Source: Collinsella aerofaciens
GTDB lineage: Bacteria > Actinomycetota > Coriobacteriia > Coriobacteriales > Coriobacteriaceae
NCBI RefSeq assembly: GCF_028206795.1
Contig: NZ_JAQLFJ010000001.1
Span: 124,001-188,000 of the forward strand
Reading direction: 5' to 3'
DNA length: 64,000 bases
Of this stretch, positions 2,439 through 26,739 are shown piece after piece; positions within the stretch are counted from its first letter, which is position 1, and each line of letters opens with the position of its first letter. Made by a program: the position numbers and the translations under genes. The notes under the pieces are model-generated. The model saw only the letters and a program-made list of their open reading frames with translations. It searched no databases and was not told the origin of the DNA.

Positions 2439-2497
2439 TGTCTCAATCTGTAACATCTAGCAGTGAAAACGGGGTCTACGTGTTACAGATTGAGACA
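2439..2497. repeat. Family 1 palindromic element, copy 1
   Basis: Left arm TCTCAATCTGTAAC at 2441; right arm starts TTACAG at 2483, 42 nt later. It lies between the convergent rubredoxin and mntH genes and is followed by copy 2 at a pitch of 80 bp. Confidence 0.9.
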
Positions 2498-2518
2498 AAC
2501 GGAGCTGTCCCTCGGAAT

Positions 2519-2577
2519 AATCTCGACCTGTAACATCTAGACATCAAAAGCGGGTTTAGATGTTACAGATCGAGACG
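2519..2577. repeat. Family 1 palindromic element, copy 2
   Basis: Left arm at 2521 (TCTCGACCTGTAAC), right arm at 2563, again 42 nt apart. The inner bases ATCTA/TAGAT also pair. It ends 26 nt before the mntH stop (minus strand). Confidence 0.9.
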
Positions 2578-2603
2578 TTTGACTGGGTGGACATGCGGCC
2601 TCG

Positions 2604-3860
2604 TTACATCCCGGTCAACAGCACGGCGTCGAGCGCCGTTACGACGACACCGATCCCTACAAGCAGCGCGTTGAGCGGGCGCGAATTGGCGTATTTGCCC
2701 ATGACGCGGCGTGAACTGGTGAGCCGTATGAGCACAAAGACCGTAATCGGCAGCTGAAGCGACAGCAGCGCCTGGCTCCAGATGAGACCTTCAAAGGGAT
2801 TTGGAACGACCAGGCACGCCGCCACTGCTCCGGCAAAGCAGAGTGCCACGCCAATCGATGAGTGTCGGTCGTGGATGTCGTATTCCTCGTCGAACATGCC
2901 CGCAGTGATGGTTCCCGCCGCCATGCCCGCTGTCACGCTGCTCGAGAGGCCCGCAAACAGTAGCGCCACGGCAAAGATGGTCGCGCTTGCCGGGCCCAGA
3001 ATGGGGGAGAGCGTGGCCGCTGCGACGGCGAGGTCGTCTACGACAATGCCGTGCGCAAAGAAGGTCGTTGCGGCCAGGATGACCATGGCCGAGTTGATTG
3101 CCCAGCCCACGCCCATCGAAAAGAGCGTGTCGAAGAGCTCGTAGCGCAGACGCTCTTCGATAACCTGCTCGCCTTGGCCTTCGAAGTGCATGGATTGGAT
3201 GACCTCGGAGTGCAGAAAAAGGTTGTGGGGCATAACGACCGCACCCAGGACACTCACGATAATCGCGGCAGAGCCAGTGGGCATACTGGGCGTGATCCAG
3301 CTTGCGGCGGCCTGCGGCCAGTCGACCTTGACCAGCGCAAGCTCGGCCAAAAACGAGAGTCCTACCACGCCTACGAAGGCGATGATCCAGCGTTCGGCAC
3401 GTTTGTAGGAGTTGGTCATGAGCATCGCCATCGATACTGCCGCCACGATGACGCAGCCCGCGCGCACGGGCAGCCCAAAGAGCATTTGAAGGGCAATCGC
3501 GCCGCCCAGGACTTCGGCCATGGCGGTGGCGATGGTCGCGAGATAGGCGCTGCCGAGCACCGCGCGTCCCACGATGCGGGGGAGAAAGCGGGTCGTGGCC
3601 TCGGCAAGACAGGCGCCCGTGGCGATACCCAAGTGTGCCGCGTTGTGCTGCAGCACAATGAGCATAATCGTGGACAGCGTGACGATCCACAGCAGCGCGT
3701 AGCCAAACTGCGAGCCCGCGGCCATATTGGAGGCCCAGTTGCCCGGGTCGATAAAGCCGACGGTCACAAGCAGCCCGGGGCCGATATGCCGCGCAATATC
3801 TAGGCCTCCGTGACCACCGGTGCGTCGGGAGCCAAAGTGTTGTTTGAGATGGTTGAGCAT
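2604..3860 (-). CDS. mntH: NRAMP-family Mn2+/Fe2+ transporter
   Basis: A proton-coupled divalent metal importer in the cytoplasmic membrane, 418 aa with about eleven hydrophobic segments. The two metal-site signatures are present: DPGN at residues 38-41 in TM1 and MPHN at 210-213 in TM6, where the Asp, Asn and Met ligate Mn2+/Fe2+. The start at 3860 (MLNHLKQ) is chosen because GGAG lies 6-9 nt upstream. The frame extends 12 codons further, but without a ribosome site. It lies 75 nt downstream of gpmA on the same strand and may be co-transcribed; phosphoglycerate mutases of some bacteria need Mn, but this gpmA is the cofactor-dependent type. No Mn regulator site was recognised. Confidence 0.93.
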   Translation of the reverse strand: MLNHLKQHFGSRRTGGHGGLDIARHIGPGLLVTVGFIDPGNWASNMAAGSQFGYALLWIVTLSTIMLIVLQHNAAHLGIATGACLAEATTRFLPRIVGRAVLGSAYLATIATAMAEVLGGAIALQMLFGLPVRAGCVIVAAVSMAMLMTNSYKRAERWIIAFVGVVGLSFLAELALVKVDWPQAAASWITPSMPTGSAAIIVSVLGAVVMPHNLFLHSEVIQSMHFEGQGEQVIEERLRYELFDTLFSMGVGWAINSAMVILAATTFFAHGIVVDDLAVAAATLSPILGPASATIFAVALLFAGLSSSVTAGMAAGTITAGMFDEEYDIHDRHSSIGVALCFAGAVAACLVVPNPFEGLIWSQALLSLQLPITVFVLIRLTSSRRVMGKYANSRPLNALLVGIGVVVTALDAVLLTGM

Positions 3861-3935
3861 GGTGCGCTCCTGTGTATGGGCGGCGTGACGTCGCATCTGG
3901 GCCGTGCGGCGCCACGCGTCGGTTTTGGGTTGGGG

Positions 3936-4709
3936 CTACTTGTGTGCTTTGCCCTGATTGGCCACGGCGTCGATCTTGGCGGCGATGGTCGCCGGGTCGC
4001 CGATGTAGCGCTTGTCGAGGACGTTGAAATCGGTGTCGAAGGTGTAGACGAGCGGCACGCCGGTGGGGATGTTGACCTTGAGGATCTCCTCGGGCGTGAG
4101 GTGCTCGAGCTTCATGACGAGTGAGCGCAGGGAGTTGCCGTGTGCGGCGATGAGTACGCGCTTGCCGGCGAGCATCTGGGGGCGAATCTCGTCTTCGAAA
4201 TAAGGCCAGGCGCGGGCGATCGTGTCCTTGAGGCACTCGGTATAGGGCAGCTGATCGGGCGCGACATCACGGTATTGCTCCTGGGTGTGGGGATCGCGCG
4301 CGTCGTCCGGTTCGAGTGCCGGCGGGCAGACATCGAAGGAGCGGCGCCAGATGAGCACCTGCTCGTCGCCGTGCTCCGCTGCGGCATCGGCCTTGTTGAG
4401 ACCCTGCAACGCTCCGTAGTGGCGCTCGTTGAGCTTCCAGGATTTGATGACGGGCAACCACTCGCGATCCATTTGGTCGAGCACGATGTCGAGGGTGTGA
4501 ATTGCGCGCTTGAGACGCGAGGTGTAGCAGACGTCGAAGTCGAAGCCCGCTTCTTTGAGGGCTCGACCGCCTGCGGCGGCTTCTTCGCGGCCCGTGTCCG
4601 TGAGCTCAACATCGGTCCAGCCGGTGAACAGGTTGAGTTTGTTCCACTCGGATTCTCCGTGACGGATAAGGACAAGTTGCATTGTCTGTCGGTCTGCTCG
4701 GTGCGCCAT
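3936..4709 (-). CDS. gpmA: 2,3-bisphosphoglycerate-dependent phosphoglycerate mutase
   Basis: Interconverts 3- and 2-phosphoglycerate in glycolysis through a phosphohistidine. The protein is 257 aa, the family size. The RHGESEWN catalytic motif at residues 16-23 carries the phospho-acceptor His17, followed by [13 protein letters not shown]. Later come [12 protein letters not shown] with the acid/base Glu and AAHGNSLR with the second His. The start at 4709 follows AGGAGG by 5 nt on the minus strand. A second Met at residue 10 fits the common family N-terminus (MQLVLIRHG), but the upstream ribosome site favours 4709. It is divergent from gltB across a gap with two family 1 elements. Confidence 0.96.
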
Positions 4710-4846
4710 AGGGGCCTCCTTGATCTGGCACGGTGTGCGTGCCGTTTGCTTGACGCCGCAAAGGATACCCGTTTTAGGCTAAAAAGTTAACCAAGACTAA
4801 CAAAATTGTTGTATTTGAATGGGCTGGCGAAAGGGGGCTGCCGAAA

Positions 4847-4905
4847 TGTCTCGATCTGTAACAACTAGGGATGGAAATTGGGCCTAGCTGTTACAGATCG
4901 AGACA
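4847..4905. repeat. Family 1 palindromic element, copy 3
   Basis: Left arm TCTCGATCTGTAAC at 4849, right arm TTACAG at 4891 (42 nt). Inner CTAG is mirrored as CCTAG. It lies in the divergent gpmA-gltB gap, so it cannot simply be a terminator. Confidence 0.9.
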
Positions 4906-4926
4906 AACCAAAACCGTCCTGCAGAA

Positions 4927-4985
4927 AATCTCAATCCGTAACATCTAGGGGCCAAAATCGGCTCCTCCTGTTACAGATTGAGATG
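4927..4985. repeat. Family 1 palindromic element, copy 4
   Basis: Left arm TCTCAATCCGTAAC at 4929, right arm at 4971 (42 nt). Its left anchor is exactly 80 bp from copy 3. Confidence 0.9.
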
Positions 4986-5168
4986 TTTGAAGAGGTGAGT
5001 TTGCAGGCCGAACTTGGGGCCTATGTTGTCGCCCTTGAGGTCGGCGGTACCCACTCGTAAGGTGTGCGTTACGCGATTGTTTCGAAACGGGCGGGAAACA
5101 CAGCGGGCCGGCGATGCTCTTAGTATGCCTAGTCAACTGACTGTCTAAATATCTAGGGGAGGATCGCG

Positions 5169-11789: not shown

Positions 11790-12497
11790 ATGACTGACCA
11801 CGCTTTTGACCGAGCAGAGCTGGCTGAAGCCGTCGGCAACGATATTGCCGACATGGCTCACTTTTGGATGCTGCGGAAGTTTCAATTCCTGGAGCCGGCG
11901 CGCGAACAGTTCGAAGTCATTGTCGACCCGTGGCTCAGCTATTGCGAGGGGCCTTCTCAAAACGAAATCATGGCCTACAACATGGCGTTTACCGATTGGC
12001 TGCTCTTCGAGCGCCCCTATCGCCATGGCAAAACGCTGCTCGAGCTATATGTTGACGAGCCGCCGGCATCGCTTTCGCCTGCCTCGCTCAAGCGGCTCGA
12101 GCAGGTACGCGACACGCAGTATTTCTCGCGCTTTGGCATTTTGGACAAGAATCCTGCGTCCGGCATGGTCGTGCTGAAGGACACGCGCACCGATCATCGC
12201 TTTGATGTCTACGACCCGCATATCGTGCGGAAGGAGCATTGGAACGACGGCGCGATTGCGGTGCGCCTCGCCTGCGTCGACGATGTCTGGCTTACGGCGG
12301 GACAGCTCTACCTGTATGACATCGCGCGCCTGAACGACACGGCGGTCGACGGGCCGGGTGCGGTGCATCCCGAGGACCTGCAGGACGGCTTTGACACCTC
12401 GTGCATCAGCTTCTTCTTGCGTCTGGTCCGCGACATCATGGGCGCCCAGGGGCGTTACGTAAAGTCGCTCAATATTTACGAGCAAGAATGGGAGTAG
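11790..12497 (+). CDS. Hypothetical protein, 235 aa
   Basis: I do not recognise this family. The gene is real: GAGGAGG lies 7 nt before the ATG, codon use matches neighbouring genes, and the frame is long and uninterrupted. The product is soluble and acidic, with no signal peptide or membrane segment. Aromatic and charged stretches such as DMAHFWMLRKFQFLEPAR and NEIMAYNMAFTDWLLFERP suggest a compact alpha-rich N-terminal half, followed by a beta-rich middle (VVLKDTRTDHRFDVYDPH). A DUF-type domain is likely, but I can name none. It is followed by three tandem family 1 elements that separate it from the nuclease-like gene. Confidence 0.7.
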   Translation: MTDHAFDRAELAEAVGNDIADMAHFWMLRKFQFLEPAREQFEVIVDPWLSYCEGPSQNEIMAYNMAFTDWLLFERPYRHGKTLLELYVDEPPASLSPASLKRLEQVRDTQYFSRFGILDKNPASGMVVLKDTRTDHRFDVYDPHIVRKEHWNDGAIAVRLACVDDVWLTAGQLYLYDIARLNDTAVDGPGAVHPEDLQDGFDTSCISFFLRLVRDIMGAQGRYVKSLNIYEQEWE

Positions 12498-12536
12498 GGG
12501 ATGGGCGGTTGTCGCCTGCCTCGCCTTCTGCCTTTA

Positions 12537-12595
12537 TGTCTCGATCTGTAACGTTTGGGGACAAAAAACCGGTCTACCTGTTACGGATCGAGACG
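12537..12595. repeat. Family 1 palindromic element, copy 5
   Basis: Left anchor 12539, right anchor 12581 (42 nt). The first of three tandem copies; the right arm reads TTACGGATCGAGAC and the left arm carries GTAACG instead of GTAACA. Confidence 0.9.
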
Positions 12596-12616
12596 AATGC
12601 TTGGGCGCCGCTGGTT

Positions 12617-12675
12617 TGTCTCAATCTGTAACGTTTAGGGGTCTGGAGAACGTCTTACTGTTACGGATCGAGACG
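12617..12675. repeat. Family 1 palindromic element, copy 6
   Basis: Left anchor 12619, right anchor 12661 (42 nt), exactly 80 bp after copy 5. The loop is unrelated to its neighbours apart from length. Confidence 0.9.
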
Positions 12676-12696
12676 TTTGTCACCTGGCTGGGGGAA

Positions 12697-12755
12697 TGTC
12701 TCAATCTGTAACATCTACAGTCCAAAAATCGGTCTTCTTGTTACAGATCAAGACG
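12697..12755. repeat. Family 1 palindromic element, copy 7
   Basis: Left anchor 12699, right anchor 12741 (42 nt), exactly 80 bp after copy 6. It ends about 20 nt before the start of the nuclease-like gene, inside its likely promoter or leader. Confidence 0.9.
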
Positions 12756-12774
12756 TTTGTCGGCGGAGGCAACG

Positions 12775-13899
12775 GTGACGATGGTCCATTTGTCCGATGT
12801 GGTGGTGATGGAAGTGCCTAATACCGTTTTCAAGCACAAGCATACGACTCGCAACACGTTGGCGCGGAATAGGATGCTCGCGCGACTCACGGAGGCGACC
12901 GAGCAAGGTGCGCTGCTCGCAACGCATGACAATGCCGAGCTCATGTGGCTACGGCGTCATGTGGGAACCGATGATATTGCGGAGCCCGAGCCGTATTTGT
13001 TCTGCTTTCAACATGATTGGGGTGTACTGACGCCGGCGGAGCGAGCGCTGCGTACCATCAAAGGGCTTGCAGAGTTTCATCCCGATTGGGCGTTTTGGGG
13101 TTATGACGCGGCACTTTTGTGGGGTCTGGAGGTGCCGAATGATCTGCTTGGGCCACGATATCTTGTTATGACAGGTTGCTCGGTGCCGCTGAGTGCAGGA
13201 TGTCGGCTGTTGCGTCCGCAGGCGGCGGGCGCACTTGAACAAGTCGACGGCGTGCAGGCGACGTCGTTTTGGCGCACGGTGGAGGATTGCTTGCTGCGTG
13301 CGCCGTTCTCCTACGGGTTGGCGATTGCCGATTCTGCATTGAGGGCAAGGGGCGTATCGCGCGATGACCTGTGCGAGTGTCTCCGCTCCGATTGCGAGGG
13401 CAGGCGCGGGTATCGCAGGGCGCAAGTGATTGCGTCATATGCGGACGGCTTGTCCGAAAACGGCGGCGAGTCTCGCTTTCGGGCGTTCTTTATTGCATAC
13501 GGTTTTCCGGTGCCAGAGTTGCAGGTGGAGTTTCGCGACCCGCTTGATCAGAGCCAAGTGTTTCGCGTCGACTATTTTTGGCGGCTCGAGGACGGGACAT
13601 GTGTCATCGGCGAGCTCGACGGAAAGGGGAAGTACACCTTGCAGAACAGCGAGGGTCGGGAGTCGGTCGACCCATTCGTGGCAGAGCGTCAGCGGGAATC
13701 TCATCTGACAATGCTCGGGCATAAGGTGCTTCGGTTTACGTTTGATGAACTCAAAGACCCGGGGAAGCTGGTCGAGAAAATGAGGCTGGCGGGTATTCCT
13801 CGGCAGGTTGAATTGGCTGAGGAGTGGAGATGCCAGTGGTATGGGCGCCGAGAGGTTTTGTCTCGATCCGTAACGGTTAGAGGCTGTTTGAGCTCGTAA
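12775..13899 (+). CDS. Protein with DUF559/Vsr-like nuclease-fold C-terminus
   Basis: A 374-aa protein. The C-terminal third resembles the PD-(D/E)XK-type DUF559/Vsr-like domain: FRVDYFW places an Asp at residue 266, GELDGKGKY gives E280/D282/K284, and a later HKVLRFTFDEL strand-helix is typical. The N-terminal two thirds may be a helical or winged-helix module, as in AbiEi-like proteins; this is a guess. GTG 12775 is chosen because GGAGG at 12765-12769 lies 5 nt upstream; ATG 12781 is an alternative. Three family 1 elements precede the gene. A fourth begins at 13859, so the last 13 or so codons (after about residue 361) are made of repeat DNA. This suggests the original C-terminus was replaced or extended. 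The gene could encode a defence or toxin-type nuclease; its substrate is unknown. Confidence 0.6.
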   Translation: MTMVHLSDVVVMEVPNTVFKHKHTTRNTLARNRMLARLTEATEQGALLATHDNAELMWLRRHVGTDDIAEPEPYLFCFQHDWGVLTPAERALRTIKGLAEFHPDWAFWGYDAALLWGLEVPNDLLGPRYLVMTGCSVPLSAGCRLLRPQAAGALEQVDGVQATSFWRTVEDCLLRAPFSYGLAIADSALRARGVSRDDLCECLRSDCEGRRGYRRAQVIASYADGLSENGGESRFRAFFIAYGFPVPELQVEFRDPLDQSQVFRVDYFWRLEDGTCVIGELDGKGKYTLQNSEGRESVDPFVAERQRESHLTMLGHKVLRFTFDELKDPGKLVEKMRLAGIPRQVELAEEWRCQWYGRREVLSRSVTVRGCLSS

Positions 13900-13917
13900 T
13901 TGTTACAGATCGAGACA
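13859..13917. repeat. Family 1 palindromic element, copy 8
   Basis: Left anchor 13861, right anchor 13903 (42 nt). The left arm and most of the loop are translated as the end of the upstream gene, whose TAA at 13897-13899 is inside the element. Confidence 0.9.
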
Positions 13918-13939
13918 AACCGGCGAAACGTCGACCGAA

Positions 13940-13998
13940 TGTCTTGATCTGTAGCATCAAGGGGCCCAATAACCCTGTACTTGTTACAGATCGAGACA
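13940..13998. repeat. Family 1 palindromic element, copy 9
   Basis: Left anchor 13942 (TCTTGATCTGTAGC), right anchor 13984 (42 nt), 81 bp after copy 8. The left arm is slightly degenerate. Confidence 0.85.
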
Positions 13999-14147
13999 TT
14001 TCCCTGGTGTCGCCGGGGTGGGACTGCAACGTATTCCGTCCCCCCACATCCCCTCTTCCTTCCGTTAACCGATGCGTCTGCGGCAATCCGGCGGGACTGG
14101 GCGATAATGGACAAATGTTCAAGTTAATCGTGAGGGAGGAGCTCGAT

Positions 14148-15518
14148 ATGGCATCTGCCGATCGTTCCACGTTGTTTATCAATGCGACCATTCTGGATGG
14201 TTCGGAACATATGGAGCCGCAACCCGATATGGCCGTGACTGTTGAGCGCGGCGTCATCACCTGGATGGGGCCGAGTGCTGTGGCGCAGGCGCCTGCAGGT
14301 GCCGAGGTTATCGACCTGGGTGGTGCGTATCTCATGCCCGGTCTCATCAATATGCACGTGCACCTGTGCGGCTCGGGCAAGCCTGTCTCGGCCGGCGATG
14401 CGGGAGCGCTGATGAAGAAACTCGATAATCCCGTGGGCCGTGCCATCGTCTGCCGCATCCTCAAGGGCAGTGCCCAGCAGCAGCTGGCAAGCGGCGTGAC
14501 CACGGTGCGCGGCGCGGGCGACCCGTTGTTTGCCGACATTGCCGTGCGCGACGCTATCGACGCCGGCAAGTATCAGGGTCCGCGCCTGGTGGCGCCGGGA
14601 ACGGGCGTCACGGTGCCGGGCGGCCATGGCGCGGGCTTGTTCGCCCAGGTGGCCAACAGCCCCGTCGAGGCAGCCGAGCAGGTGCGAGACCTGTATGCGC
14701 GCGGCGCCGACGTCATTAAGCTGTTCGTAACGGGCGGTGTGTTCGATGCGACCGAGGTGGGCGAGCCGGGCGTGCTGCGTATGCCGGTGGAGGTTGCCGC
14801 GGCGGCGTGCAAGGCGGCGCACGAGGTGGGCCTGCCGGTTATGGCTCATGTCGAGAGCACCGAGGGCGTGAAGGCCGCGCTTGAGGCCGGGGTCGACACG
14901 ATCGAGCACGGTGCCCCGATGACGCCCGAGATCCTGGAGCTGTACCGTGGCGCCGCGGGCACGCAGCTCGAGGGACGTGCGCCCAGCGTTACCTGCACTA
15001 TCAGCCCGGCGCTGCCGTTTGTGTTGCTCGATCCGGAGAAGACCCATTCGACTGACACGCAAAAGAAGAACGGCGACATCGTGTGCTCGGGCATTATCGA
15101 GAGTGCTCGTGCGGCGCTGGATGCCGGCGTTAAGGTGGGCTTGGGCACGGACTCAAGCTGCCCGTTCGTGACGCAGTACGACATGTGGCGCGAGGTGGCC
15201 TATTTTGCCAAGTACGTGGGCGTGAGCAACGCCTTTGCGCTGCATACGGCCACGCAGGTCAATGCCGAGCTCCTGGGGCTGGGCGGCGAGACCGGTACGA
15301 TCGAGTGCGGCAAGGCCGCCGATATCCTGGTGACGCGCAAGAATCCGCTCGATGACCTGTGCACTCTGCGTGAGCCGACGCATGTGATGTGTCGCGGTGA
15401 TCTGGTACGCAAGCTCAAGGTGAAGCGTATTCCCGAGGTGGACGCCGAGCTCGACGCGATTATGGCCATGCCTGCCGAAGCGCTGGCTGAGGAGCTGGCC
15501 CGCGACGGCGTGGCGTAG
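14148..15518 (+). CDS. Imidazolonepropionase-like amidohydrolase
   Basis: A metal-dependent hydrolase of the amidohydrolase superfamily, 456 aa. Visible hallmarks are the HxH metal motif MHVHLCG (H70, H72), a likely carbamylated or bridging Lys in DVIKLFVTGG, His in MAHVEST and IEHGAP, and the catalytic Asp in GLGTDSSCP near residue 335. The C-terminal GKAADILVTRKNPL is the usual end of the composite beta-sandwich. The substrate could be an imidazolone, a cyclic dipeptide or another amide; sequence alone does not decide. ATG 14148 follows GGGAGGAG at 14133-14140; the frame is open upstream into repeat copy 9, but no ribosome site supports that. A bidirectional terminator follows. Confidence 0.88.
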   Translation: MASADRSTLFINATILDGSEHMEPQPDMAVTVERGVITWMGPSAVAQAPAGAEVIDLGGAYLMPGLINMHVHLCGSGKPVSAGDAGALMKKLDNPVGRAIVCRILKGSAQQQLASGVTTVRGAGDPLFADIAVRDAIDAGKYQGPRLVAPGTGVTVPGGHGAGLFAQVANSPVEAAEQVRDLYARGADVIKLFVTGGVFDATEVGEPGVLRMPVEVAAAACKAAHEVGLPVMAHVESTEGVKAALEAGVDTIEHGAPMTPEILELYRGAAGTQLEGRAPSVTCTISPALPFVLLDPEKTHSTDTQKKNGDIVCSGIIESARAALDAGVKVGLGTDSSCPFVTQYDMWREVAYFAKYVGVSNAFALHTATQVNAELLGLGGETGTIECGKAADILVTRKNPLDDLCTLREPTHVMCRGDLVRKLKVKRIPEVDAELDAIMAMPAEALAEELARDGVA

Positions 15519-19339: not shown

Positions 19340-19370
19340 ACTATACACCCATACCCCCTGGGGGTGTCCA
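19340..19370 (-). promoter_or_regulatory. copA promoter with CsoR-type operator
   Basis: On the minus strand TGGACA (19365-19370) and TATAGT (19340-19345) flank a 19-bp spacer. The spacer and -35 contain ACCCCCTGGGGGT, the GC-rich palindrome typical of CsoR operators (19353-19365 core). Repressor bound here would block the promoter directly. Confidence 0.75.
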
Positions 19371-19441
19371 GTGCAGAAAAATATATGAGATTTCATTACA
19401 GATGAAGATGGATGGTTGGCCGATGGACCGTCCCTGCCAAA

Positions 19442-19498
19442 CATCTCGATCTGTAACATCTGGACCGGTTTGCCTGCTAGATGTTACAGATCGAGACA
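19442..19498. repeat. Family 1 palindromic element, copy 10
   Basis: Left anchor 19444, right anchor 19484. This is the only copy with a 40-nt instead of 42-nt anchor distance. The arms extend further than usual (ATCT/AGAT pair). Confidence 0.9.
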
Positions 19499-19626
19499 AT
19501 CTCGGAGCAGATGCCCCGGCCATACAACGTAAAACGCCGGGGCGCCCGTGTGGTAAACGTCCCGGCGCATGTTAGGCAGGGTTTGCGAAGCGGTGGGAGG
19601 GAGGAGAAGCCGTCCTCCCGAAATCC

Positions 19627-22600
19627 TTACTCCTGACGACGCTTCTTGTCAGTCAGAAAGACGCCGGCGGCTACGAGCACGACACCTCCGATGACAAACG
19701 TCTCACCGGCGAGCGCAGCATTGTCGCCTGTGGTGGGAAGTGTCGAGTTGGCGGCCGTCTTGGCGTTGCCGGCAGGCGGCTTTCCAGTAACCGGCTTAGC
19801 GGCAGCCTGTGTGATCTTGGCCTGCTCGACCTTCGCCGCCTCTTGCTCCTGGCGGGCGATCTCGTCCTTCAGGGCTTGCTCGGCGGCTACGCGTTTTGCC
19901 TTCGCCTCGTTGTAACCGTTGAGAGCCGCGGTGTAGGCTGGCGTCGCAGCATCAAGGTCTGCCTGAGCGGCATCAAGTGCGGCCTTTGCGTTATGTTCTG
20001 CCTGCTTGGCGGCGACGCACTTGGCAAAGAGGGCATTGAGCGTATCGTTCGCGTTTGCGTCAGAGCCAGTAGCAATGCCGTTTTCGACGTTGATGGACTT
20101 GAGCTTTCCGAGAGTAGCAGCAGCGGCGTCCGATGCGGCCTGAGAATTCTCGACCGCCTGCTCGGCGTTCGCGATGGCATCATTTGCCGTGCTAAGGGCG
20201 ACTCCGGCATCGGTAACTGCTGCGTCGGCCTCCTTCTTGGCCGCCTCGGCGGTGGCAAGATTATCGGCTGCATTGCTCAGGGCGTCGGCACGGGCCTTCT
20301 TTGAAGCAAAGTCGTTTTTCGCCGTGGTCAGATCGCTCGCAGCGTGCCCCGCGGTCGCCGCCTTGGCCTCGGCGTTGTCCTTCGCGGTGTCGAGGGCCTG
20401 CTTTTTGGCAGCCTCGTCGAGCTTCGCCTTTTCGAGAGCGCTCTGGGCAGACGTCTGGGCTGCCGTGGCTTCATCAAGCGCCTGATGGGCCTTGTCGGCT
20501 TTCTCCTGAGCCGCAGCAACATCGGCTGAATACTTGGCAAGTTCCTTCTTTGCATCTTGCAGAGCCTGCTGCTTTACGAGAGTCTCTGCCTTGGCGTCAT
20601 CAACCTTCTTCTGACTCTGAGCGGCTTGCTCTTTCGATGCCTTAAGCTCGGCGCGCTTCTGGTTGACGACCTGCTCTGCGGTCGCCACGTTGCTTTGGGC
20701 GGCTTTGACCTGGTCTTCGGCTTCGGCAACTTTTCCGTTTGCCTTGGCGAGATTCTGCCTTGCTAGGGCAACAGCGGCGGCGGCACTTGCTGTGCTGTCG
20801 TTCTTGGCGGCAAGGTCGCTATTCGCGGCAACAATGCCTTTCTGCTTTTGAGCGACGAGGGTTTCAGCTGCCTTTACGGCATCGGCTTTCGATGCCGCCG
20901 TGCTGCGATTTTGCTCGAGATTTGCTTTCGCGGCGGCAAGGTTGTCGCTGGCCTTGGAGAGGTTTAGCTGATACTGATCAAAGAGATTCTCGAGTTCATC
21001 GATCGAGTATTCTTTCTCGTACGAACCGTAATTGTTGTCGATCTCCAAGACGAACACATACGGCCAAAGGGTTCCGCGCGAGTTGATGCCGTATCCCATG
21101 GTTTTGGCGTCAGGCTGTACGATATTCAAATAGTGGCCGATGGTGCCAAAACCCACGCCTTGGGCTCCGAATTCGGTACCGTGACTCCAGAAAGTCTTCC
21201 AAGCATCTTTGGGGGCAACGTTGCCAAGGCCGGCTTTCGCTGCAGCATCGTCAAATATTTTCTTTTCGCCATCAACCCATTGGTGCGCGATGTTTTCTTT
21301 AGTGCTGAAGTTCCAAGCGGCATTTTCAAATCCGGCATAGTCTGAGTGCCCCTTCGTTGCGTCGGAGTAATTGGAATCAGACTGAGCGATTGCCATTTGC
21401 TCTGCCGTCACCTTAAGCTCGCTAAGGCCGACGCTTTTGCGATATTCATTAATTTCGCGCAGCTTGCCAAACGAAAGCTTGGCGTTGTCGAGTGACGTGC
21501 CGTCTTTTTTATCGCCAATGGTCGTTGGGTTTTTATCGCTCTGCCTATAGATGATGTTTGCAGCGTCATTGGCACCGATGAACTGGTAGAAGCCGATGAC
21601 GCTCTGCGCCTCCGCCGTCGTTGCCTTATCGGTTGCTGCCTTGCACGTATCGTATGCTTTCTGTGCATCGACAACGGCTTGATCGGCGGCCGCCTGGTTT
21701 GCCTTGGCAGTTTCGAGCGCCTTGTCTGCCTGCTCCTTCTCGGCTTTTGCCTGGTCGACTTGTTTCTGAGCGGCCTTTGCCTTCTCCAGTTCGGTAGCAT
21801 GTGCCTGCTTTGCCGAGGTCAACTCCGATTGCGCCGCATCGGCTTTCGTCTGGGCTGCCGTTACATCATTTTCGGCTGCTGCGACTGTCTGCTTCTTGGC
21901 TTCGAGCTCGCTTTCGGCACCGGTGAGGGCGTCCTGCTTGGATGCAACGTCGCTATTTGCCTTAGAAAGGCCTGCTTCGGCAGCCGCCTGCTGCTGCTTC
22001 GCCTGGTCGAGTGCGCTTTGGGCAGCATCGACCTTTGCTTGGGCGGCGTCATACTCCGGGCCCTCGGCGCCTGCCTTTGCGGCCGCCAAATCGGCTTGTG
22101 CGCTGTCATGCGCTGTCTGTGCTGCGACTACCTTACCATCCGCGGCGGTCTTTTCCTGCTGAGCGGAAGCCAGCGTACCTGCCGCTTCGTCGTAAGCGCT
22201 CTGCGCGGCGCTCTGAGCCTGCTGAGCGTCGGCGAGCGCGGAATCGGCAGTGGCCTTCGCAGCCTTTGCTTGGTCCAGAGCGGCCTGCGCATCTGCGGCA
22301 GCCTGCTCGGCGACCTTGATTTCCTCCGGCGTTGCGTTGACGGCTGCCTTCTGGGCTGCCTCGAGCTTTGCCTGCGCATCAGCTGCCGCCTGCTTCGCGG
22401 CATCAAGGGCCTTCGACTTGTCCTCGGCATCGGTCTTGGCTGCATCGAGCTTTCCTTGGGCATCCTTCAGCGTGGCACTGGCGCTGTCGGCCGCCTTGAC
22501 GCTTTCATCGAGCTGGCGAGCATATTCGGCACGCGCGGCGGCCTCTGCCTGCGAATTATCGGAGGCGGAGGCGTCATAGGTGCTTTGTGTGTTGTCGCGG

Positions 22601-22962
22601 GCCGCCTGCTTTTCGGTATAGGGGGCAGCTGCCGTGTCGTAGTCGGATTTGGCGTCTGCCTCGGCAGCCTTTGCGGCGTCGATTGCAGCCTGCAAGTCGG
22701 CAATCTTCTGGGCGTTTGTCTTTACTGCGGAACCTGCCGCCTCGCCGGCGTGGACAGCAAGCGGGGACATGATCGCGTCCTGTGCCGTGGTGTCACTCGC
22801 ATCGTTGGCAAATGCCGAGAACGGCGCGAGCAGCGACGAGCCAGTCATAGCGATGGTGGTTGCCGCGGTGACGGCGAGTCGTGTTGCCTTGTGGCCCGAG
22901 AATGTGGGGCGAGGCTCGGCGACGCCTGAGACTTCCAAGTGTTTAGGTGCGTACTTTGCCAT
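19627..22962 (-). CDS. LPXTG-anchored coiled-coil surface protein with CAP domain
   Basis: A 1111-aa cell-wall protein. Order: a basic N-terminus with a signal-like hydrophobic segment near residues 28-50 (AATTIAMTGSSLLAPFSAFA), a long Ala/Lys/Glu/Asp heptad-rich coiled coil (about 75-440), a globular CAP/SCP-like domain (about 465-640), a second long coiled coil (about 660-1030), a Pro/Ala linker, the sortase motif LPTTGD at 1075-1080, a membrane segment and a KKRRQE tail. CAP features are visible: His in GHSDYAG, Glu in KENIAHQW and His in GHYLNI. The ATG at 22962 follows GGAGA by about 4 nt; a TTG four codons upstream overlaps the ribosome site. Adhesion or cell-wall spacing is plausible; no ligand is known. 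Confidence 0.9.
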   Translation of the reverse strand: MAKYAPKHLEVSGVAEPRPTFSGHKATRLAVTAATTIAMTGSSLLAPFSAFANDASDTTAQDAIMSPLAVHAGEAAGSAVKTNAQKIADLQAAIDAAKAAEADAKSDYDTAAAPYTEKQAARDNTQSTYDASASDNSQAEAAARAEYARQLDESVKAADSASATLKDAQGKLDAAKTDAEDKSKALDAAKQAAADAQAKLEAAQKAAVNATPEEIKVAEQAAADAQAALDQAKAAKATADSALADAQQAQSAAQSAYDEAAGTLASAQQEKTAADGKVVAAQTAHDSAQADLAAAKAGAEGPEYDAAQAKVDAAQSALDQAKQQQAAAEAGLSKANSDVASKQDALTGAESELEAKKQTVAAAENDVTAAQTKADAAQSELTSAKQAHATELEKAKAAQKQVDQAKAEKEQADKALETAKANQAAADQAVVDAQKAYDTCKAATDKATTAEAQSVIGFYQFIGANDAANIIYRQSDKNPTTIGDKKDGTSLDNAKLSFGKLREINEYRKSVGLSELKVTAEQMAIAQSDSNYSDATKGHSDYAGFENAAWNFSTKENIAHQWVDGEKKIFDDAAAKAGLGNVAPKDAWKTFWSHGTEFGAQGVGFGTIGHYLNIVQPDAKTMGYGINSRGTLWPYVFVLEIDNNYGSYEKEYSIDELENLFDQYQLNLSKASDNLAAAKANLEQNRSTAASKADAVKAAETLVAQKQKGIVAANSDLAAKNDSTASAAAAVALARQNLAKANGKVAEAEDQVKAAQSNVATAEQVVNQKRAELKASKEQAAQSQKKVDDAKAETLVKQQALQDAKKELAKYSADVAAAQEKADKAHQALDEATAAQTSAQSALEKAKLDEAAKKQALDTAKDNAEAKAATAGHAASDLTTAKNDFASKKARADALSNAADNLATAEAAKKEADAAVTDAGVALSTANDAIANAEQAVENSQAASDAAAATLGKLKSINVENGIATGSDANANDTLNALFAKCVAAKQAEHNAKAALDAAQADLDAATPAYTAALNGYNEAKAKRVAAEQALKDEIARQEQEAAKVEQAKITQAAAKPVTGKPPAGNAKTAANSTLPTTGDNAALAGETFVIGGVVLVAAGVFLTDKKRRQE

Positions 22963-23028
22963 TTCTTCTCCCAATCGTTGAAGGGGTACCTATGACAATT
23001 TGTACGTTACAACCGCCGAAAGGGTTCC

Positions 23029-23040
23029 TGTTGCGCAACA
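23029..23040. promoter_or_regulatory. Palindrome upstream of surface protein gene
   Basis: TGTTGCGCAACA is a perfect 12-bp palindrome 67 bp before the surface protein start (minus strand). It may be a regulator site; no known consensus is claimed. Confidence 0.35.
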
Positions 23041-23102
23041 TTGGCAAGGAAATGTCGACACACTTGAGTCACATTTATGAGGCGAAGTTCTCGGCAAGCT
23101 AA

Positions 23103-23161
23103 TGTCTCGTTCTGTAACATCTAGGCCTGTATCTGCCGAGCTAATGTTACAGATCGAGACA
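23103..23161. repeat. Family 1 palindromic element, copy 11
   Basis: Left anchor 23105 (TCTCGTTCTGTAAC), right anchor 23147 (42 nt). A single copy between the surface protein gene and the kinase gene, both on the minus strand. Confidence 0.9.
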
Positions 23162-23202
23162 ATTGCCGGGGAGGGGTCCCGTCACGGCAAGACGCCCGCC
23201 GC

Positions 23203-25287
23203 CTAGATACAGAACCCGGGGATCACACAGGTTCGCTTATTTGGCTTGTCCGCAGGCGTTGCGTACGTAAAGACGTCGCCGTCGTGTCCCACACGATTCA
23301 AATAGAGTGTGCCTCCACTCTCCGATGTGTCAGGGCTCACCGTGCGCTCCCACCAGCAGGTGTCCTTGCCCTTCCACTGGCGGACCATCGTCTCGTTCGT
23401 GGAATACGGGCTCACCTTGAGCTCGCGGAAGAGCTGATACTCCTTGCCCTCGCCGTTGTAGATGTCTGCCAGGTAGTGATAGCCCTCGGCAAACGAATCG
23501 GGCGGTTGCGTACCGCACAGCTCGACCATGGCGGGCAGCCAAAGGGTTGCGGGCAACTCGCTCAGACACGATGCACTGTTGGCGGCGCCCACATTGTTCG
23601 AGACCTTCTTGACCCCTTTAATGAGCGCGCGCAACTCGTTGGGCAGCAGCTTAAGGCCGTCGCCGTCGAGCCATTCCCGCAGCTCGCAATCTGCCCAGCC
23701 GGCGCTCGGCGGTTCAGTCGCAGCATCGCGCTCGGCAATACCCGCGTCGAACATAAACGTCAGCCCGGCCTTGCCCGTCCCGTCCAGAAGCTCATCGTGG
23801 CGGATGCCCACAAGCTGAGCGCCGACCTCCAGCCCGTTGGCGAGCTTCACACGCTTGGTGCACGGATAGGGGATATGCCCATCAACGTCGAGCAGGTGGT
23901 AGCGCTTGGCAATCTCGTGTGCCTCGCTACGGGTCTCGGCGGCCTTAATCTTGAGCGAAATCTCCTGCAGCTGAGCCCAGGTGTAGTCGTCAAGCGAACC
24001 GCGGATGCCGTCCAGGTAGTCGGGGATGCCAAAGCCATGGGTTGCCGCCCCGATAACGCCGAGCCCCGCAACGGCTGCAACGACGCCGCCGATGACAAAG
24101 CGACGGCGTGTCATGGCGTCGTGCCGGGCCTGCTCCAAAATCTCTCGCGCGCGCTCGCCGGCGACGTCGACCTTAAGGTGCGCGCCAGAATCGATATCAA
24201 TTGCGGCCTCGTCTCCTGCACCCTCGTGGTCCTCAGATTCTGCAGCGGGGAGGTATGTCGAGAGCACCTCGAGCATCTGCTGCTCGGTAGGGCGATCGCC
24301 CTGTTCGACCGAGATGCCTTTCATGATGATCTGGACAAGCGCTTTGTCGCCCTCGCAGCGCGGCTCGAGCGGCGCCGGTTTGGTCTTGGTCTTTATGAGG
24401 TAGAACGAGCCGGTCGCCGCGGCACCCGTCGACTCGACATCGAACGGTTTGCGACCGCTGTAGAGCTGGTACAGAATGCTCGAAAGCGCATAGACGTCGA
24501 TCGCGGGCGAGCGGCGAAGGGCCGCGATGCCTTCGATATCCTGCGTGAGCATTTCGGGCGCGGCGTATGCGGGCGTGGCAAAGCGCCAGATGTCGGCGCG
24601 CCGGGTGATCGTGTCGTCGCCGAGGGCCATGGTCGCGGAGCCCATGTCGATGAGACAGGGGTCAAAGGAGCAATCGGCAATCTGCTGCTCGAGCGTTCGG
24701 CTGGTGGTGCGGAACATGATATTGGCAGGCGACAGGTCGCGATGGACGACCGGATTCACAAGGCCTTGGGTCATCAAGAGCGCGCGAAGCACAGCGTTTC
24801 CGACGGCGGCGACCATCTGGGTGGTCAGCCCGCCCGAGGCGTCGTGCGGAAGCAAGGGCAGCGCCTGTTTGAGCGAGGTGCCCTCGACCCACTCCATGAG
24901 GATAAGCGGGTCGTCCTCGCACGATCCGTAGCCATAGACGCGCGGAAATCCGCGCAGGTGCGAGACGGTACACAGATGACGGTACTCCTCGAACAGTGCG
25001 GCGGTGTTGGCCAGGTGCGCGGCCGATTGCTCGGCGGAGCGGTCGGGGGCTTGGCCGGAAAGGATGGCGTTGTCCTTGAGTAGCTTGACGGCAAAAACCT
25101 CGCCGCTTGTGTTGGTCGCGCGAAGCACATGTCCGATATTGCCGCTGTCGCGGTATGCCGTCTGAAGAATAAGCGTCATAAACCGGCGTCTGGCGTCGTC
25201 CTCGGCACTGGGGTCGACTGCCACGGCGGTATCGAACGTATCGAGACGGATGAGTTTGTCGCCATAGGCGCTATCGGTAGTATCCAT
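23203..25287 (-). CDS. Transmembrane Ser/Thr kinase with C-terminal sensor-like domain
   Basis: A 694-aa Hanks-type kinase. The ATP-binding Lys is K68 in FAVKLLKD, the catalytic loop is HRDLSPANIMF with Asp184, and the metal motif is DMGS (in place of DFG), followed by an APE-like YAAPEM. A hydrophobic segment near 390-412 (FVIGGVVAAVAGLGVIGAA) leaves about 280 residues outside the cell. That part resembles DUF6273-type domains (WADCELREWLDGDG, SSNNVGAANSAS-like region). The start at 25287 (MDTTDSAYG) follows AAGGAA; upstream codons lie in a palindrome. The FHA gene lies 171 nt upstream on the same strand. DMG instead of DFG is common in some kinases and does not mean inactivity. Substrates are unknown. 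Confidence 0.88.
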   Translation of the reverse strand: MDTTDSAYGDKLIRLDTFDTAVAVDPSAEDDARRRFMTLILQTAYRDSGNIGHVLRATNTSGEVFAVKLLKDNAILSGQAPDRSAEQSAAHLANTAALFEEYRHLCTVSHLRGFPRVYGYGSCEDDPLILMEWVEGTSLKQALPLLPHDASGGLTTQMVAAVGNAVLRALLMTQGLVNPVVHRDLSPANIMFRTTSRTLEQQIADCSFDPCLIDMGSATMALGDDTITRRADIWRFATPAYAAPEMLTQDIEGIAALRRSPAIDVYALSSILYQLYSGRKPFDVESTGAAATGSFYLIKTKTKPAPLEPRCEGDKALVQIIMKGISVEQGDRPTEQQMLEVLSTYLPAAESEDHEGAGDEAAIDIDSGAHLKVDVAGERAREILEQARHDAMTRRRFVIGGVVAAVAGLGVIGAATHGFGIPDYLDGIRGSLDDYTWAQLQEISLKIKAAETRSEAHEIAKRYHLLDVDGHIPYPCTKRVKLANGLEVGAQLVGIRHDELLDGTGKAGLTFMFDAGIAERDAATEPPSAGWADCELREWLDGDGLKLLPNELRALIKGVKKVSNNVGAANSASCLSELPATLWLPAMVELCGTQPPDSFAEGYHYLADIYNGEGKEYQLFRELKVSPYSTNETMVRQWKGKDTCWWERTVSPDTSESGGTLYLNRVGHDGDVFTYATPADKPNKRTCVIPGFCI

Positions 25288-25319
25288 GGCGTTCCTTTGT
25301 CTGGCATGGGTTGCCGCGC

Positions 25320-25380
25320 GTATACGTGGGCAGTGCGGATATCGGTAAAGTACTATGATAGCCGCACTGCCCACGTATAC
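25320..25380. repeat. Perfect 19-bp inverted repeat between FHA and kinase genes
   Basis: Arms 25320-25338 (GTATACGTGGGCAGTGCGG) and 25362-25380 are exact reverse complements around a 23-nt AT-rich centre containing TACTATGATAG. It sits 33 nt upstream of the kinase start, so it may be an operator or an RNA hairpin in the kinase leader. Confidence 0.85.
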
Positions 25381-25426
25381 CGCTGGGTATTGTCGTTTAC
25401 GACGCAGAAGGTAGAAGACAAAAGAC

Positions 25427-25455
25427 GGGCGGTGACCGTCTTTCGATCACCGCCC
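25427..25455 (-). terminator. Terminator after FHA gene
   Basis: On the minus strand GGGCGGTGA/TCACCGCCC forms a 9-bp stem, followed by TCTTTTGTCTTC. It begins 3 nt after the FHA stop. Confidence 0.75.
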
Positions 25456-25458
25456 GCG

Positions 25459-26421
25459 CTAGTCCACAATGACAAGGAATGTCGTGTAGAGACCCAGATG
25501 GAGCCTGTCGCTGTTTTCGATTTCCACCGGGGGATAGATCTTGCCGGGTTCGCGTTGGTCGCGCGGCGGCTCAATCACAATATCGCCGTCGCCCGCGCCC
25601 GATTCGAGCACTGTGCCGTTGGTCGATCCAAGGCCCTGGGCGTACCAGCGTCCACCTTCGAGCCAAATGCGGAGATGCTCGCGCGATGCATCGGTGCCTA
25701 CATCGGTGATGCTGGGCGAGGTTTTGGGCAAGGACCCAATTACCGTGCCGCGCGGATCGCGTGTGAGGGGATGGATTTGCATGTCGGCGCAGTTGTCGGC
25801 ATGGGTTCTGAGCAGACCGAGGTTGGGGGCGACAGTGCGCGGCTGCTCCAGGCTGCTCATAAAGCCACGTCCGACGGTAGTTTCGGTGGTGCCAAAGTGC
25901 CCGCCTGTCTTGCTGTCGCAAAAGCGCTCGACGGTGGCCACGCCTTGGATGGGGTCAGCGAGCGCCCCCGTTGCCACAAAGAGCATAAGGTAAAGCGTAC
26001 TCTTCTCGCGCACGGCATTGCCGTCAAAGTTGTCGATGCGATTGAGGGCATTTGCATATAGGCAGCTGTCCAACTTGTAGCTGGCGAGAGCCGACATCAT
26101 TTCGTTGGCGGCCGGGCCGCGATAGTGCTCGGCGATTGCCTGATAGGCGGACTCGCCGCTGCCGAGCTTGCTGCAGATTGCCGCGGAAAGATTGAGCGTG
26201 GTGATGGCAAAGTCGCTGTAGATGGCGGGCGCGCACTGGTCAGGCTCGCGATGGACGATGTAACGGGTGAGATACGAGCGGTTGGAAGAGCATTTCTCGA
26301 GCAGGGTACTGCCGAGATAAGAGTTTCCATTGATGAGCATTCGGGCGATCTCGAGATGTTTAAGACCGCCGAACGAGCGAATATCGTTATAGAGGACCGA
26401 GCAAGGCGTCTCTGCTGCCAC
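25459..26421 (-). CDS. FHA-domain protein
   Basis: A 320-aa protein with a forkhead-associated domain at the C-terminus (about 225-315), which binds phosphothreonine peptides. The core residues are visible: SREH near residue 243 and GSTNGTVLES near 263. The N-terminal 200 residues are helical and of unknown family. The start is GTG 26421 because AGGAGG lies 5 nt upstream; the TTG-initiated longer frame at 26451 would span that ribosome site. It is followed by a terminator, a 19-bp palindrome and the transmembrane kinase gene, which suggests a phospho-signal reader paired with its writer. Confidence 0.88.
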   Translation of the reverse strand: MAAETPCSVLYNDIRSFGGLKHLEIARMLINGNSYLGSTLLEKCSSNRSYLTRYIVHREPDQCAPAIYSDFAITTLNLSAAICSKLGSGESAYQAIAEHYRGPAANEMMSALASYKLDSCLYANALNRIDNFDGNAVREKSTLYLMLFVATGALADPIQGVATVERFCDSKTGGHFGTTETTVGRGFMSSLEQPRTVAPNLGLLRTHADNCADMQIHPLTRDPRGTVIGSLPKTSPSITDVGTDASREHLRIWLEGGRWYAQGLGSTNGTVLESGAGDGDIVIEPPRDQREPGKIYPPVEIENSDRLHLGLYTTFLVIVD

Positions 26422-26599
26422 GGATACCTCCTTTGATTGCTTCCTAGCCAATATGGCGATAGGAATTAATGGCCCCCGGTGGGCGACGTATTAAATGGCT
26501 GCGCAATATATAGCGTAACCAAAGCAACATTATAGGCCACATGTTCGAAATTGCAGGAAGACTGAGAGATTTGGTTTGGACTGGACGGAAATTCCTCTC

Positions 26600-26658
26600 T
26601 GTCTTGATCTATAACAATTAGGGCCGATTTTACTCGTTAACTGTTACAGATTGAGACG
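26600..26658. repeat. Family 1 palindromic element, copy 12
   Basis: Left anchor 26602 (TCTTGATCTATAAC), right anchor 26644 (42 nt). Inner bases AATTA and TTAACT partly pair. Confidence 0.88.
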
Positions 26659-26680
26659 TTTGTGAGCCGTGTCGACCGTT

Positions 26681-26739
26681 TGTCTCGATCTGTAACACGT
26701 AGAGGAAGATTTGCCCTGTAGATGTTACAGACCGAGACA
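26681..26739. repeat. Family 1 palindromic element, copy 13
   Basis: Left anchor 26683, right anchor 26725 (42 nt), 81 bp after copy 12. Confidence 0.9.

What the first reader, a model, noticed from the sequence alone, without database searches (positions are those of the whole stretch)
2439..26739. Family 1 palindromes: 13 copies with fixed 42-nt geometry but variable loops
Thirteen intergenic elements share arms TCTCGATCTGTAAC and TTACAGATCGAGA. The distance from the left anchor (TCTC) to the right anchor (TTAC) is exactly 42 nt in 12 copies and 40 nt in one, while the inner 20 or so bases differ greatly. They occur in convergent, divergent and co-directional gaps, so termination alone does not explain them. 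Constant length with free loop sequence suggests a folded RNA or DNA hairpin, or a mobile element held by a size-measuring protein. I know of no described family with this consensus, but I could not search.
Basis: seen in the sequence. Interest (0 to 1): 0.85.

Follow-up and report, generated by a model that had tools for sequence, protein, structure and literature searches.

The report
Fixed-geometry palindrome arrays in Collinsella
One group of human-gut Collinsella bacteria carries a few dozen copies of a 55-letter palindrome between its genes, often in evenly spaced rows, which look like docking sites for an unidentified DNA-binding protein and tend to lie where strains have gained or lost genes.

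Summary
Observation confirmed; interpretation partly. Window: 13 copies, 12 of 55 bp and one of 53 bp.

Of 597 units collected, 585 are 55 bp. Of 43 held genomes of the genus, 22 have 24-62 copies and 21 have 0 or 1; order-wide 24 of 395 genomes match, one outside the genus, with a single match. Named records are Collinsella (80 of 80 listed).

The inner bases do not covary as a stem; one pair is rather avoided. Between orthologous units arms change at 0.04, loops 0.087, flanks 0.10: constraint on the arms as double-stranded DNA. None of seven RAYT/IS200 loci examined carries the repeat. Units come and go in 80/81-bp steps, and arrays coincide with synteny breaks (9 of 10 array gaps against 33 of 138).

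Best reading (0.5): BIME-like docking arrays for a clade-specific protein, with recombination at arms as a consequence. The protein was not found.

The parts
2441..2495 (.). F1 unit, 55 bp (first of a 2-unit array, spacer 25 bp)
   Evidence: in G059 only a right arm remains at this place
2521..2575 (.). F1 unit, 55 bp (second of the array)
4849..4903 (.). F1 unit, 55 bp (first of a 2-unit array, spacer 25 bp)
4929..4983 (.). F1 unit, 55 bp
12539..12593 (.). F1 unit, 55 bp (first of a 3-unit array, spacers 25 and 25 bp)
12619..12673 (.). F1 unit, 55 bp
12699..12753 (.). F1 unit, 55 bp
12781..13899 (+). ORF without Pfam match lying between two arrays; other upstream sequence stands there in L260, L264 and L265; its stop codon is lost in this window and it reads 13 codons into the next unit
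13861..13915 (.). F1 unit, 55 bp (first of a 2-unit array, spacer 26 bp)
   Evidence: the same locus has 1, 2, 3, 4 or 5 units in 22 other genomes
13942..13996 (.). F1 unit, 55 bp
19444..19496 (.). F1 unit, 53 bp, the only short one in the window
   Evidence: corresponds to the third unit of a 3-unit array in G059
19497..23104 (-). 3.6-kb segment with one CAP-domain gene (ORF 19627-22974) between two F1 units; absent at this place in G059, where the flanking units belong to one 3-unit array
23105..23159 (.). F1 unit, 55 bp
26602..26656 (.). F1 unit, 55 bp (first of a 2-unit array, spacer 26 bp)
26683..26737 (.). F1 unit, 55 bp; the edge of a synteny break with G059 lies 6 bp from it

Best explanation
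Each unit is a double-stranded DNA docking site: two 14-bp arms in opposite orientation held 41 bp apart around a central A-tract, repeated at 80/81 bp so that arms of alternating orientation follow every 39-41 bp. A sequence-specific protein, not identified here and probably acquired or invented in the ancestor of the Collinsella aerofaciens group, is inferred to bind the arms and to assemble across the fixed spacings, in the manner of BIME arrays in enterobacteria (protein-bound elements between transcription units). Arrays grow and shrink by whole units because crossovers between arms keep the register; the same crossovers join different arrays, so genes between arrays are lost or swapped. 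Shown: the geometry, the clade restriction, the constraint on the arms in orthologous units, the unit-wise gain and loss, the coincidence with synteny breaks. Inferred: the protein, its assembly, the boundary function, and that recombination at arms causes the breaks.
For: Length 55 bp in 585 of 597 units; spacers between neighbours 25 bp in 160, 26 in 109, 24 in 8, 23 in 1 and 180 in 1 of 279. Loops of paralogous units in G059 differ at a median of 13 of 27 positions, while noncoding DNA of this clade has about one gap opening per 13 mismatches (447 for 5,811), so constant length is not what drift gives. In 604 orthologous pairs mismatch is 0.040 and 0.037 in the arms (largely at positions 4, 5, 51 and 52), 0.087 in the loop, 0.10 in the flanking 25 bp, with A15, T18, A27-29, A38 and T41 at 0.01-0.03. 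Clade: 22 of 43 genomes with 24-62 copies, 21 with 0 or 1; 24 of 395 in the order. Convergent gaps hold 7 of 18 arrays in G059 against 78 of 568 gaps of 200 bp or more (Fisher P 0.009). Unit-wise change. Breaks at arrays: 8 of 10 arrays in a 400-kb stretch of G014 (null mean 1.5, largest of 2,000 draws 6), 8 of 9 in the matching stretch of G059 (null mean 1.7, largest 7); by gaps, 9 of 10 against 33 of 138, P 5e-5, and 6 of 7 against 23 of 79 for gaps of 250-1,500 bp, P 0.005. Two other palindrome families are not enriched there: F2 0 of 7 and 2 of 9, F3 0 of 1 and 1 of 3.
Against: No binding protein was found: no second ParB/Noc-type protein goes with the clade (one strong ParB in 42 of 43 genomes, with and without F1; weak extra matches scattered over both). 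The helical argument is weak: no significant 10-bp periodicity of A/T along the unit (permutation P 0.99). Bias towards the origin (P 0.078) and the empty terminus region (P 0.056) do not reach significance. Constraint on arms could in part be arm-to-arm gene conversion. Most breaks are not at these repeats: 13 of 44 G014-G059 breaks have F1, F2 or F3 at an edge. The window-G059 comparison is less clear: arrays are at 2 of its 6 breaks of 300 bp or more, and three others lie at F2 palindromes.
Confidence: 0.5

Rival explanations
1. A miniature mobile element of REPIN type: the two inverted arms at fixed distance are the replicative unit, moved by a transposase acting on the hairpin formed in single-stranded DNA; arrays are BIME-like by-products.
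For: Architecture is that of REPINs: two invariant inverted oligomers at fixed distance with a poorly conserved spacer (PMC3116915, passages read). Strong single-strand folding (8 of 8 units folded out of the 13, z -5.2 to -8.4). One array stands in G014 at a site where G059 has none. PF01797 proteins are present in the clade.
Against: No compensatory changes in the inner part, whereas the REPIN paper calls them common. No RAYT or IS200 gene examined has F1 arms nearby: two RAYT-like genes in G059 (exact 9-base cores within 3 kb), one in G001 and four IS200-type loci; one G059 RAYT-like gene has another inverted repeat on both sides. PF01797 proteins also occur in 9 of 11 genomes without F1. 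Loops are conserved per locus between species instead of being shared by recent copies: the closest loop pair within G059 differs at 5 of 27. No clean insertion with target duplication was seen at the two sites inspected.
Confidence: 0.22
2. Recombination sites of a cassette-exchange system: a recombinase acts on the arms (as double strand or folded single strand, in the manner of integron attC sites) and swaps accessory genes between arrays.
For: Synteny breaks coincide with arrays; in the window a 3.6-kb gene segment is bounded within 2 bp by two units that belong to one array in G059; single-unit alleles L256 and L259 are fusions at the units.
Against: No dedicated tyrosine recombinase: all ten genomes have the same two strong PF00589 matches (Xer-like by size, recalled); beyond these G001 has only a weak partial match and G012 one further protein, and F1-bearing and F1-lacking genomes do not differ in kind. 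Serine and other recombinases were not searched. Tandem units without any cargo are common. Arm ends do not fit the recalled attC consensus RYYYAAC/GTTRRRY. Whether cargo genes sit between arrays at different chromosomal places could not be tested.
Confidence: 0.12
3. RNA hairpins: bidirectional terminators or stabilisers at the ends of transcription units.
For: Stems of about 14-15 bp, convergent gaps enriched.
Against: A T-run follows only 10 of 88 unit ends in G059; no Rfam family reaches its cut-off in the window and only two unrelated sub-threshold hits, outside the units, appear at 12400-14150; arrays also stand between divergent genes (33 of 107 arrays with two called neighbours, from the incomplete list; 4 of 18 in G059); one window array and its G059 remnant lie downstream of an ordinary GC-rich terminator-like hairpin with a T-run (by eye); no covariation inside the loop.
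Confidence: 0.1

Closest known systems
REPIN (REP doublet forming hairpin) with RAYT transposase, Pseudomonas fluorescens SBW25 (PMC3116915; abstract and passages seen)
   Same: Two inverted conserved oligomers (16-mers there, 14-mers here) at a fixed distance (71 bp for the GI type there, 41 bp here), variable inner sequence, extragenic, hairpin potential.
   Different: No compensatory inner changes, no linked RAYT found, arms not themselves hairpins, copies mostly in arrays of a fixed second spacing, loops conserved per locus between species.
BIME (bacterial interspersed mosaic element) of enterobacteria (PMC2817692; abstract and passages seen)
   Same: Regularly spaced repeats in alternating orientation between genes, length polymorphism between strains; BIMEs bind IHF and gyrase.
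   Different: Arms are not REPs (no internal hairpin, no REP tag), no cognate RAYT found, loops and spacers have fixed length but little common sequence; protein partner unknown.
GTAG- and CGTC-tagged REP superfamilies (PMC3733652; abstract and passages seen)
   Same: Dispersed short palindromes, some without a dedicated transposase (CGTC).
   Different: Those are 20-40 bp with short stems, loops of 2-20 bp and an unpaired GTAG or CGTC end; F1 has neither tag. The term Collinsella does not occur in the text held.
Integron attC sites (recalled, no paper read)
   Same: Inverted arms with variable inner sequence, association with gene gain and loss.
   Different: No integrase found, tandem sites without cargo, no R-box consensus.

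Membership tests
REPIN / REP-RAYT | two inverted conserved oligomers at a fixed distance with variable spacer | tested here: met
   585 of 597 units 55 bp
REPIN / REP-RAYT | compensatory changes within the spacer hairpin | tested here: not met
   inner Watson-Crick pairs 206 against 250 expected; pair 16-40 depleted and none of ten pairs enriched at P below 0.05 with 73 representatives
REPIN / REP-RAYT | each REP is itself an imperfect palindrome with a GTAG or CGTC end | tested here: not met
   by inspection of the arm; in 8 of 8 folds the arm pairs with the opposite arm
REPIN / REP-RAYT | a cognate RAYT gene flanked by the repeat | tested here: not met
   no F1 core within 3 kb of two RAYT-like genes in G059, nor F1 arms in the 3-kb G001 stretch and four IS200-type loci; RAYTs of other genomes not examined
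REPIN / REP-RAYT | presence of RAYT goes with abundance of the repeat | tested here: not met
   PF01797 in 13 of 13 genomes with F1 and 9 of 11 without; the search does not separate RAYT subfamilies
BIME | regularly spaced repeats in alternating orientation, extragenic | tested here: met
BIME | built from REP sequences | tested here: not met
   as for REPIN, by inspection
BIME | binds IHF or gyrase | not testable with these tools
   needs biochemistry
Integron attC | dedicated integrase | tested here: not met
   PF00589 in ten genomes, six with F1 and four without or nearly so
Integron attC | RYYYAAC / GTTRRRY boxes (recalled) | tested here: not met
   arm ends read CTGTAAC / GTTACAG
Intrinsic terminator | stem followed by a T-run | tested here: not met
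   10 of 88 unit ends
Noc / ParB binding sites | a second ParB-family protein in genomes with the sites | tested here: not met
   single strong ParB with and without F1; weak extra matches in some of both
Rfam RNA family | covariance-model match | tested here: not met

The most novel reading that the evidence does not exclude
The arrays are standard sockets for gene exchange: because every unit has the same register and arms, any two arrays can be joined at their arms, by a dedicated clade-specific enzyme or by host recombination, so that accessory genes are swapped between array-marked sites without an integron integrase or a transposon. Arrays would then be kept because they make the gene repertoire modular.
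Probability: 0.1. Interest if true: 0.85.

Novelty: new variant of a known kind. Interest (0 to 1): 0.6.

Why it matters
If the reading holds, an abundant human-gut bacterial group has a chromosomal docking system with exact two-step spacing and no known protein. Its nearly sequence-free loops make it a clean case for asking what fixed geometry is for. It also gives a testable account of where these gut strains gain and lose genes, and handy typing markers, since the number of units changes between strains.

Tried and rejected
Folded RNA or DNA stem: tested by mutual information and pair counts, rejected for the inner part. Loop inversion between the arms (phase variation): 258 pairs kept and 45 seemed to change orientation, but the 10 of 45 that were listed are pairs in which both orientations match poorly (12-15 differences of 27 at best), mostly different units of one array, so no inversion was shown. 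REPIN/RAYT. Dedicated tyrosine integrase. ParB/Noc. Wrapping with 10-bp A/T phasing: I expected it from the base profile; the test failed (P 0.99). Avoidance of the terminus: suggested by G059 and G014 positions; not significant. Orientation of the central A-tract relative to codirectional genes: 26 against 16, not significant by my estimate. Virus carriage: 5 viral contigs match; only L307 has the 27-bp spacing, and it is Collinsella DNA beside a prophage; the other four have a 28-bp gap, no match to the Collinsella sequences held, and look like chance matches; two of the four carry the same sequence. Empty sites in genomes without F1: at the amidohydrolase locus the upstream DNA is not homologous by eye, so no insertion boundary could be read. 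Cassette test with the CAP gene: homologues found but their flanks could not be cut out, so whether the gene sits between arrays at other loci is open.

Results to discount: one search's neighbour spacings and one search's contexts rest on an incomplete element list (248 units found by a fuzzy regular expression; a full scan of the same kind of loci gave 451). The gap-level table is void because of a bug in my script; one search replaces it. One search contains false small differences where a second unit lay in the flank. My gene calls are home-made; start positions are rough. Genome counts come from exact patterns, so degenerate copies are missed.

Rows dropped: alignments under 200 bp, units not of 55 bp or within 60 bp of a locus end, near-identical loops collapsed to 55, 73 or 29 representatives.
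Full report
WHAT IS THERE. The 13 copies are real and at the stated places. A unit is TCTCGATCTGTAAC, 27 bases, GTTACAGATCGAGA: 55 bp; 12 copies have this length and one (19444) has 53. Left-arm matches with up to three mismatches number 31 in the window against a mean of 2.85 in shuffles. Eleven of the 13 copies form five arrays with spacers of exactly 25 or 26 bp. In the loci scanned, 444 of 451 units are 55 bp and the spacers between neighbours are 25 (160), 26 (109), 24 (8), 23 (1) and 180 (1). With later loci, 585 of 597 units are 55 bp. So 14-bp arms of alternating orientation follow each other at 41 and 39-40 bp. Arrays have mostly 1-4 units (26, 66, 69 and 27 of 192), three have five and one has eight (orthologous arrays counted repeatedly, some cut by locus ends).

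WHERE IT OCCURS. In the held genomes of the genus, 22 of 43 have 24-62 exact-core copies and 21 have 0 or 1 (19 and 2), with 0 for the reversed control in all 43. A stricter pattern in 395 genomes of the order finds 24 with a match: the 22 rich ones, one single match in another genome of the genus and one single match in another family; the two single matches are about what chance gives by my estimate. At the amidohydrolase locus the 22 rich genomes are 90-99% identical to the window in the gene, and the seven next best 71-76%, so the repeat marks one clade.

WHAT IS CONSERVED. Arms are nearly invariant except at positions 4, 5, 51 and 52, which contain the CpG of the arm and its partner. The loop has a weak pattern: A15, T18, often AG, GC-rich, A/T tract at 26-30, GC-rich, CT, A38, T41. 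Outside, each unit is bordered by WWW-R on the left and Y-WWW on the right, and the spacer centre is GC-rich. Between orthologous units (604 pairs, in register on both sides) mismatch is 0.040 and 0.037 in the arms, 0.087 in the loop, 0.102 and 0.097 in the flanking 25 bp. Requiring similar loops biases the loop rate downward, so the contrast is conservative; flanks were also required to be similar. Paralogous loops in G059 differ at a median of 13 of 27 positions. Noncoding DNA between G014 and G059 shows 447 gap openings for 5,811 mismatches; loops of constant length at such divergence are therefore held by constraint. Half-loops recur more than shuffled columns allow (111 pairs with at most 3 of 13 differences against 54.6), so half-units may be exchanged.

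NOT A FOLDED STEM INSIDE. Single units fold strongly on their own (8 of 8 folded, z -5.2 to -8.4), which follows from the arms. Inner positions show no covariation: 206 Watson-Crick pairs against 250 expected for positions 16-27 over 55 representatives. With 73 representatives pair 16-40 has 12 against 22.4 in permutations (none of 500 as low), and 23-33 is also low; with 29 stricter representatives only 23-33 stays low. The outer pair 5-51 is slightly above expectation but not significant (43 against 36.9, P 0.10). This fits double-stranded recognition, with perhaps some avoidance of long perfect palindromes.

GENE CONTEXT. In G059 (2,306,349 bp) there are 44 units in 18 arrays; convergent gaps hold 7, divergent 4 and codirectional 7 arrays, against 78, 143 and 347 of 568 gaps of at least 200 bp (convergent P 0.009). 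Distances to called stops go down to 14 bp, distances to called starts are at least 100 bp. Ten of the neighbouring genes were compared with Pfam; they include EF-Tu, deoxyxylulose-phosphate synthase, a LacI-family regulator and an iron alcohol dehydrogenase. In the annotated record NZ_OY725717.1 none of the 13 units found overlaps a listed gene (that gene table is incomplete by its own description). Origin bias (P 0.078), the array-free stretch around the terminus (P 0.056) and 10-bp A/T phasing (P 0.99) are not supported.

DYNAMICS. At the locus before the amidohydrolase gene, the 22 rich genomes have 1 (6), 2 (8), 3 (1), 4 (6) or 5 (1) units (counted). Two one-unit alleles read as fusions: L256 keeps the first loop followed by the flank of the second unit, L259 keeps the flank of the first unit followed by the second loop. 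L271 has two neighbouring units whose loops differ at 2 of 27 and whose spacers differ at 2 of 26 positions, a recent tandem duplication. Among 974 flank pairings, 224 show no length difference, and the commonest other differences are 79-82 bp (211) and 159-162 bp (80); the rest includes false small values and larger insertions.

SYNTENY BREAKS. Window against G059: the CAP-domain gene segment 19498-23103 is absent from G059 at this place, where the bordering units belong to one three-unit array; another break has its edge 6 bp from the unit at 26683. That makes 2 of 6 breaks of at least 300 bp and 3 of the 7 arrays or single units of the window. G031 also carries the CAP gene between F1 copies. 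In 400 kb of G014 against G059 there are 44 breaks of at least 300 bp; 8 of 10 G014 arrays have a break edge inside or within 60 bp (null mean 1.5, largest 6 of 2,000) and 8 of 9 G059 arrays (null mean 1.7). By intergenic gaps, 9 of 10 with arrays against 33 of 138 without contain a break edge (P 5e-5), and 6 of 7 against 23 of 79 among gaps of 250-1,500 bp (P 0.005). Part of the exact coincidence may arise because diverged loops end the alignment at the array; the gap-level test is less exposed to this. Conversely, only 13 of the 44 breaks have F1, F2 or F3 at an edge. The F2 palindromes, an internal control, are not enriched (0 of 7 and 2 of 9), nor is F3 (0 of 1 and 1 of 3), although three of the six breaks between window and G059 lie at F2 copies.

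WHICH PROTEIN. Not found. PF01797 proteins: 13 of 13 genomes with and 9 of 11 without F1; two RAYT-like genes in G059 have no exact F1, F2 or F3 core within 3 kb, and one of them is bordered on both sides by another inverted repeat; the G001 RAYT stretch and four IS200-type loci have no arm. PF00589: two strong matches in each of ten genomes and no further kind specific to the clade. ParB: one strong match with and without F1. Serine recombinases, other transposases and other DNA-binding families were not searched.

COMPARISON WITH THE KNOWN. By architecture F1 stands between REPINs and BIMEs. A passage of the REPIN paper names length and hairpin capacity as the features of the intervening sequence and calls compensatory changes common (PMC3116915, passages); F1 has the fixed length and lacks the compensatory changes. 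The RAYT paper describes BIMEs as regularly spaced REPs in alternating orientation that bind IHF and gyrase, and REPs as binding Pol I (PMC2817692, passages). F1 arrays look and perhaps work like BIMEs but fail the REP and RAYT tests. No description of this family was seen in the search listings (open-licence PubMed Central text only) or in the passages seen of PMC8040213, PMC3733652 and PMC7771070; the last lists Collinsella among the ten genera that hold most of its metagenomic horizontal-transfer insertion sites (5.89%), and the passages seen describe no Collinsella repeat. Supplementary tables were not searched.

VERDICT. A real, clade-specific, constrained repeat system with an exact two-step geometry, undescribed as far as I could search, with mechanism inferred by analogy. 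Confidence 0.5 in docking arrays; 0.22 mobile element; 0.12 recombination sites; 0.1 RNA.

Noticed in passing
window 1363-1429, 29368-29434, 43526-43592, 54564-54630; 28 copies in G059: A second fixed-length palindrome family (F2): arms AGTTGCGGTGAAATA with 37 bases between (26 of 28 G059 copies exactly 67 bp), whose inner stems vary together by eye (GGGAC, CGGAC or GTTCC with their complements), so REPIN-like in that respect.
   Followed up: partly
G059 (L140-L255), 11 copies, none found in the window: A third family (F3): GAGAGTGGATAATCTCCC with 28 bases between, 64 bp in all 11 copies, some with paired changes in both arms.
   Followed up: no
G059 about 759600-760660: A RAYT-like gene with CATTGGGGACAGACTTA-type inverted repeats on both sides, possibly the cognate REP of this RAYT.
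   Followed up: partly
window 37208-37316: Tandem repeat of a 41-bp unit, 2.7 copies, containing its own palindrome, between convergent genes.
   Followed up: no
L307 1-2289: A contig filed as viral: DNA matching the Collinsella chromosome, with a two-unit F1 array, runs to about base 1118, and an ORF that reads like a tyrosine integrase (1162-2289, minus; by eye, no family search) follows at once, so a prophage seems to begin about 75 bp from an array.
   Followed up: partly
window 13845-13899: The ORF before the array at 13861 has a changed stop codon compared with relatives and reads 13 codons into the repeat.
   Followed up: yes
F1 arms, positions 4-5 and 51-52: The CpG of the arm and its partner are the most variable arm positions (0.17-0.22 at three of the four, above the flank mean of 0.10), as expected if the cytosine were methylated.
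   Followed up: no
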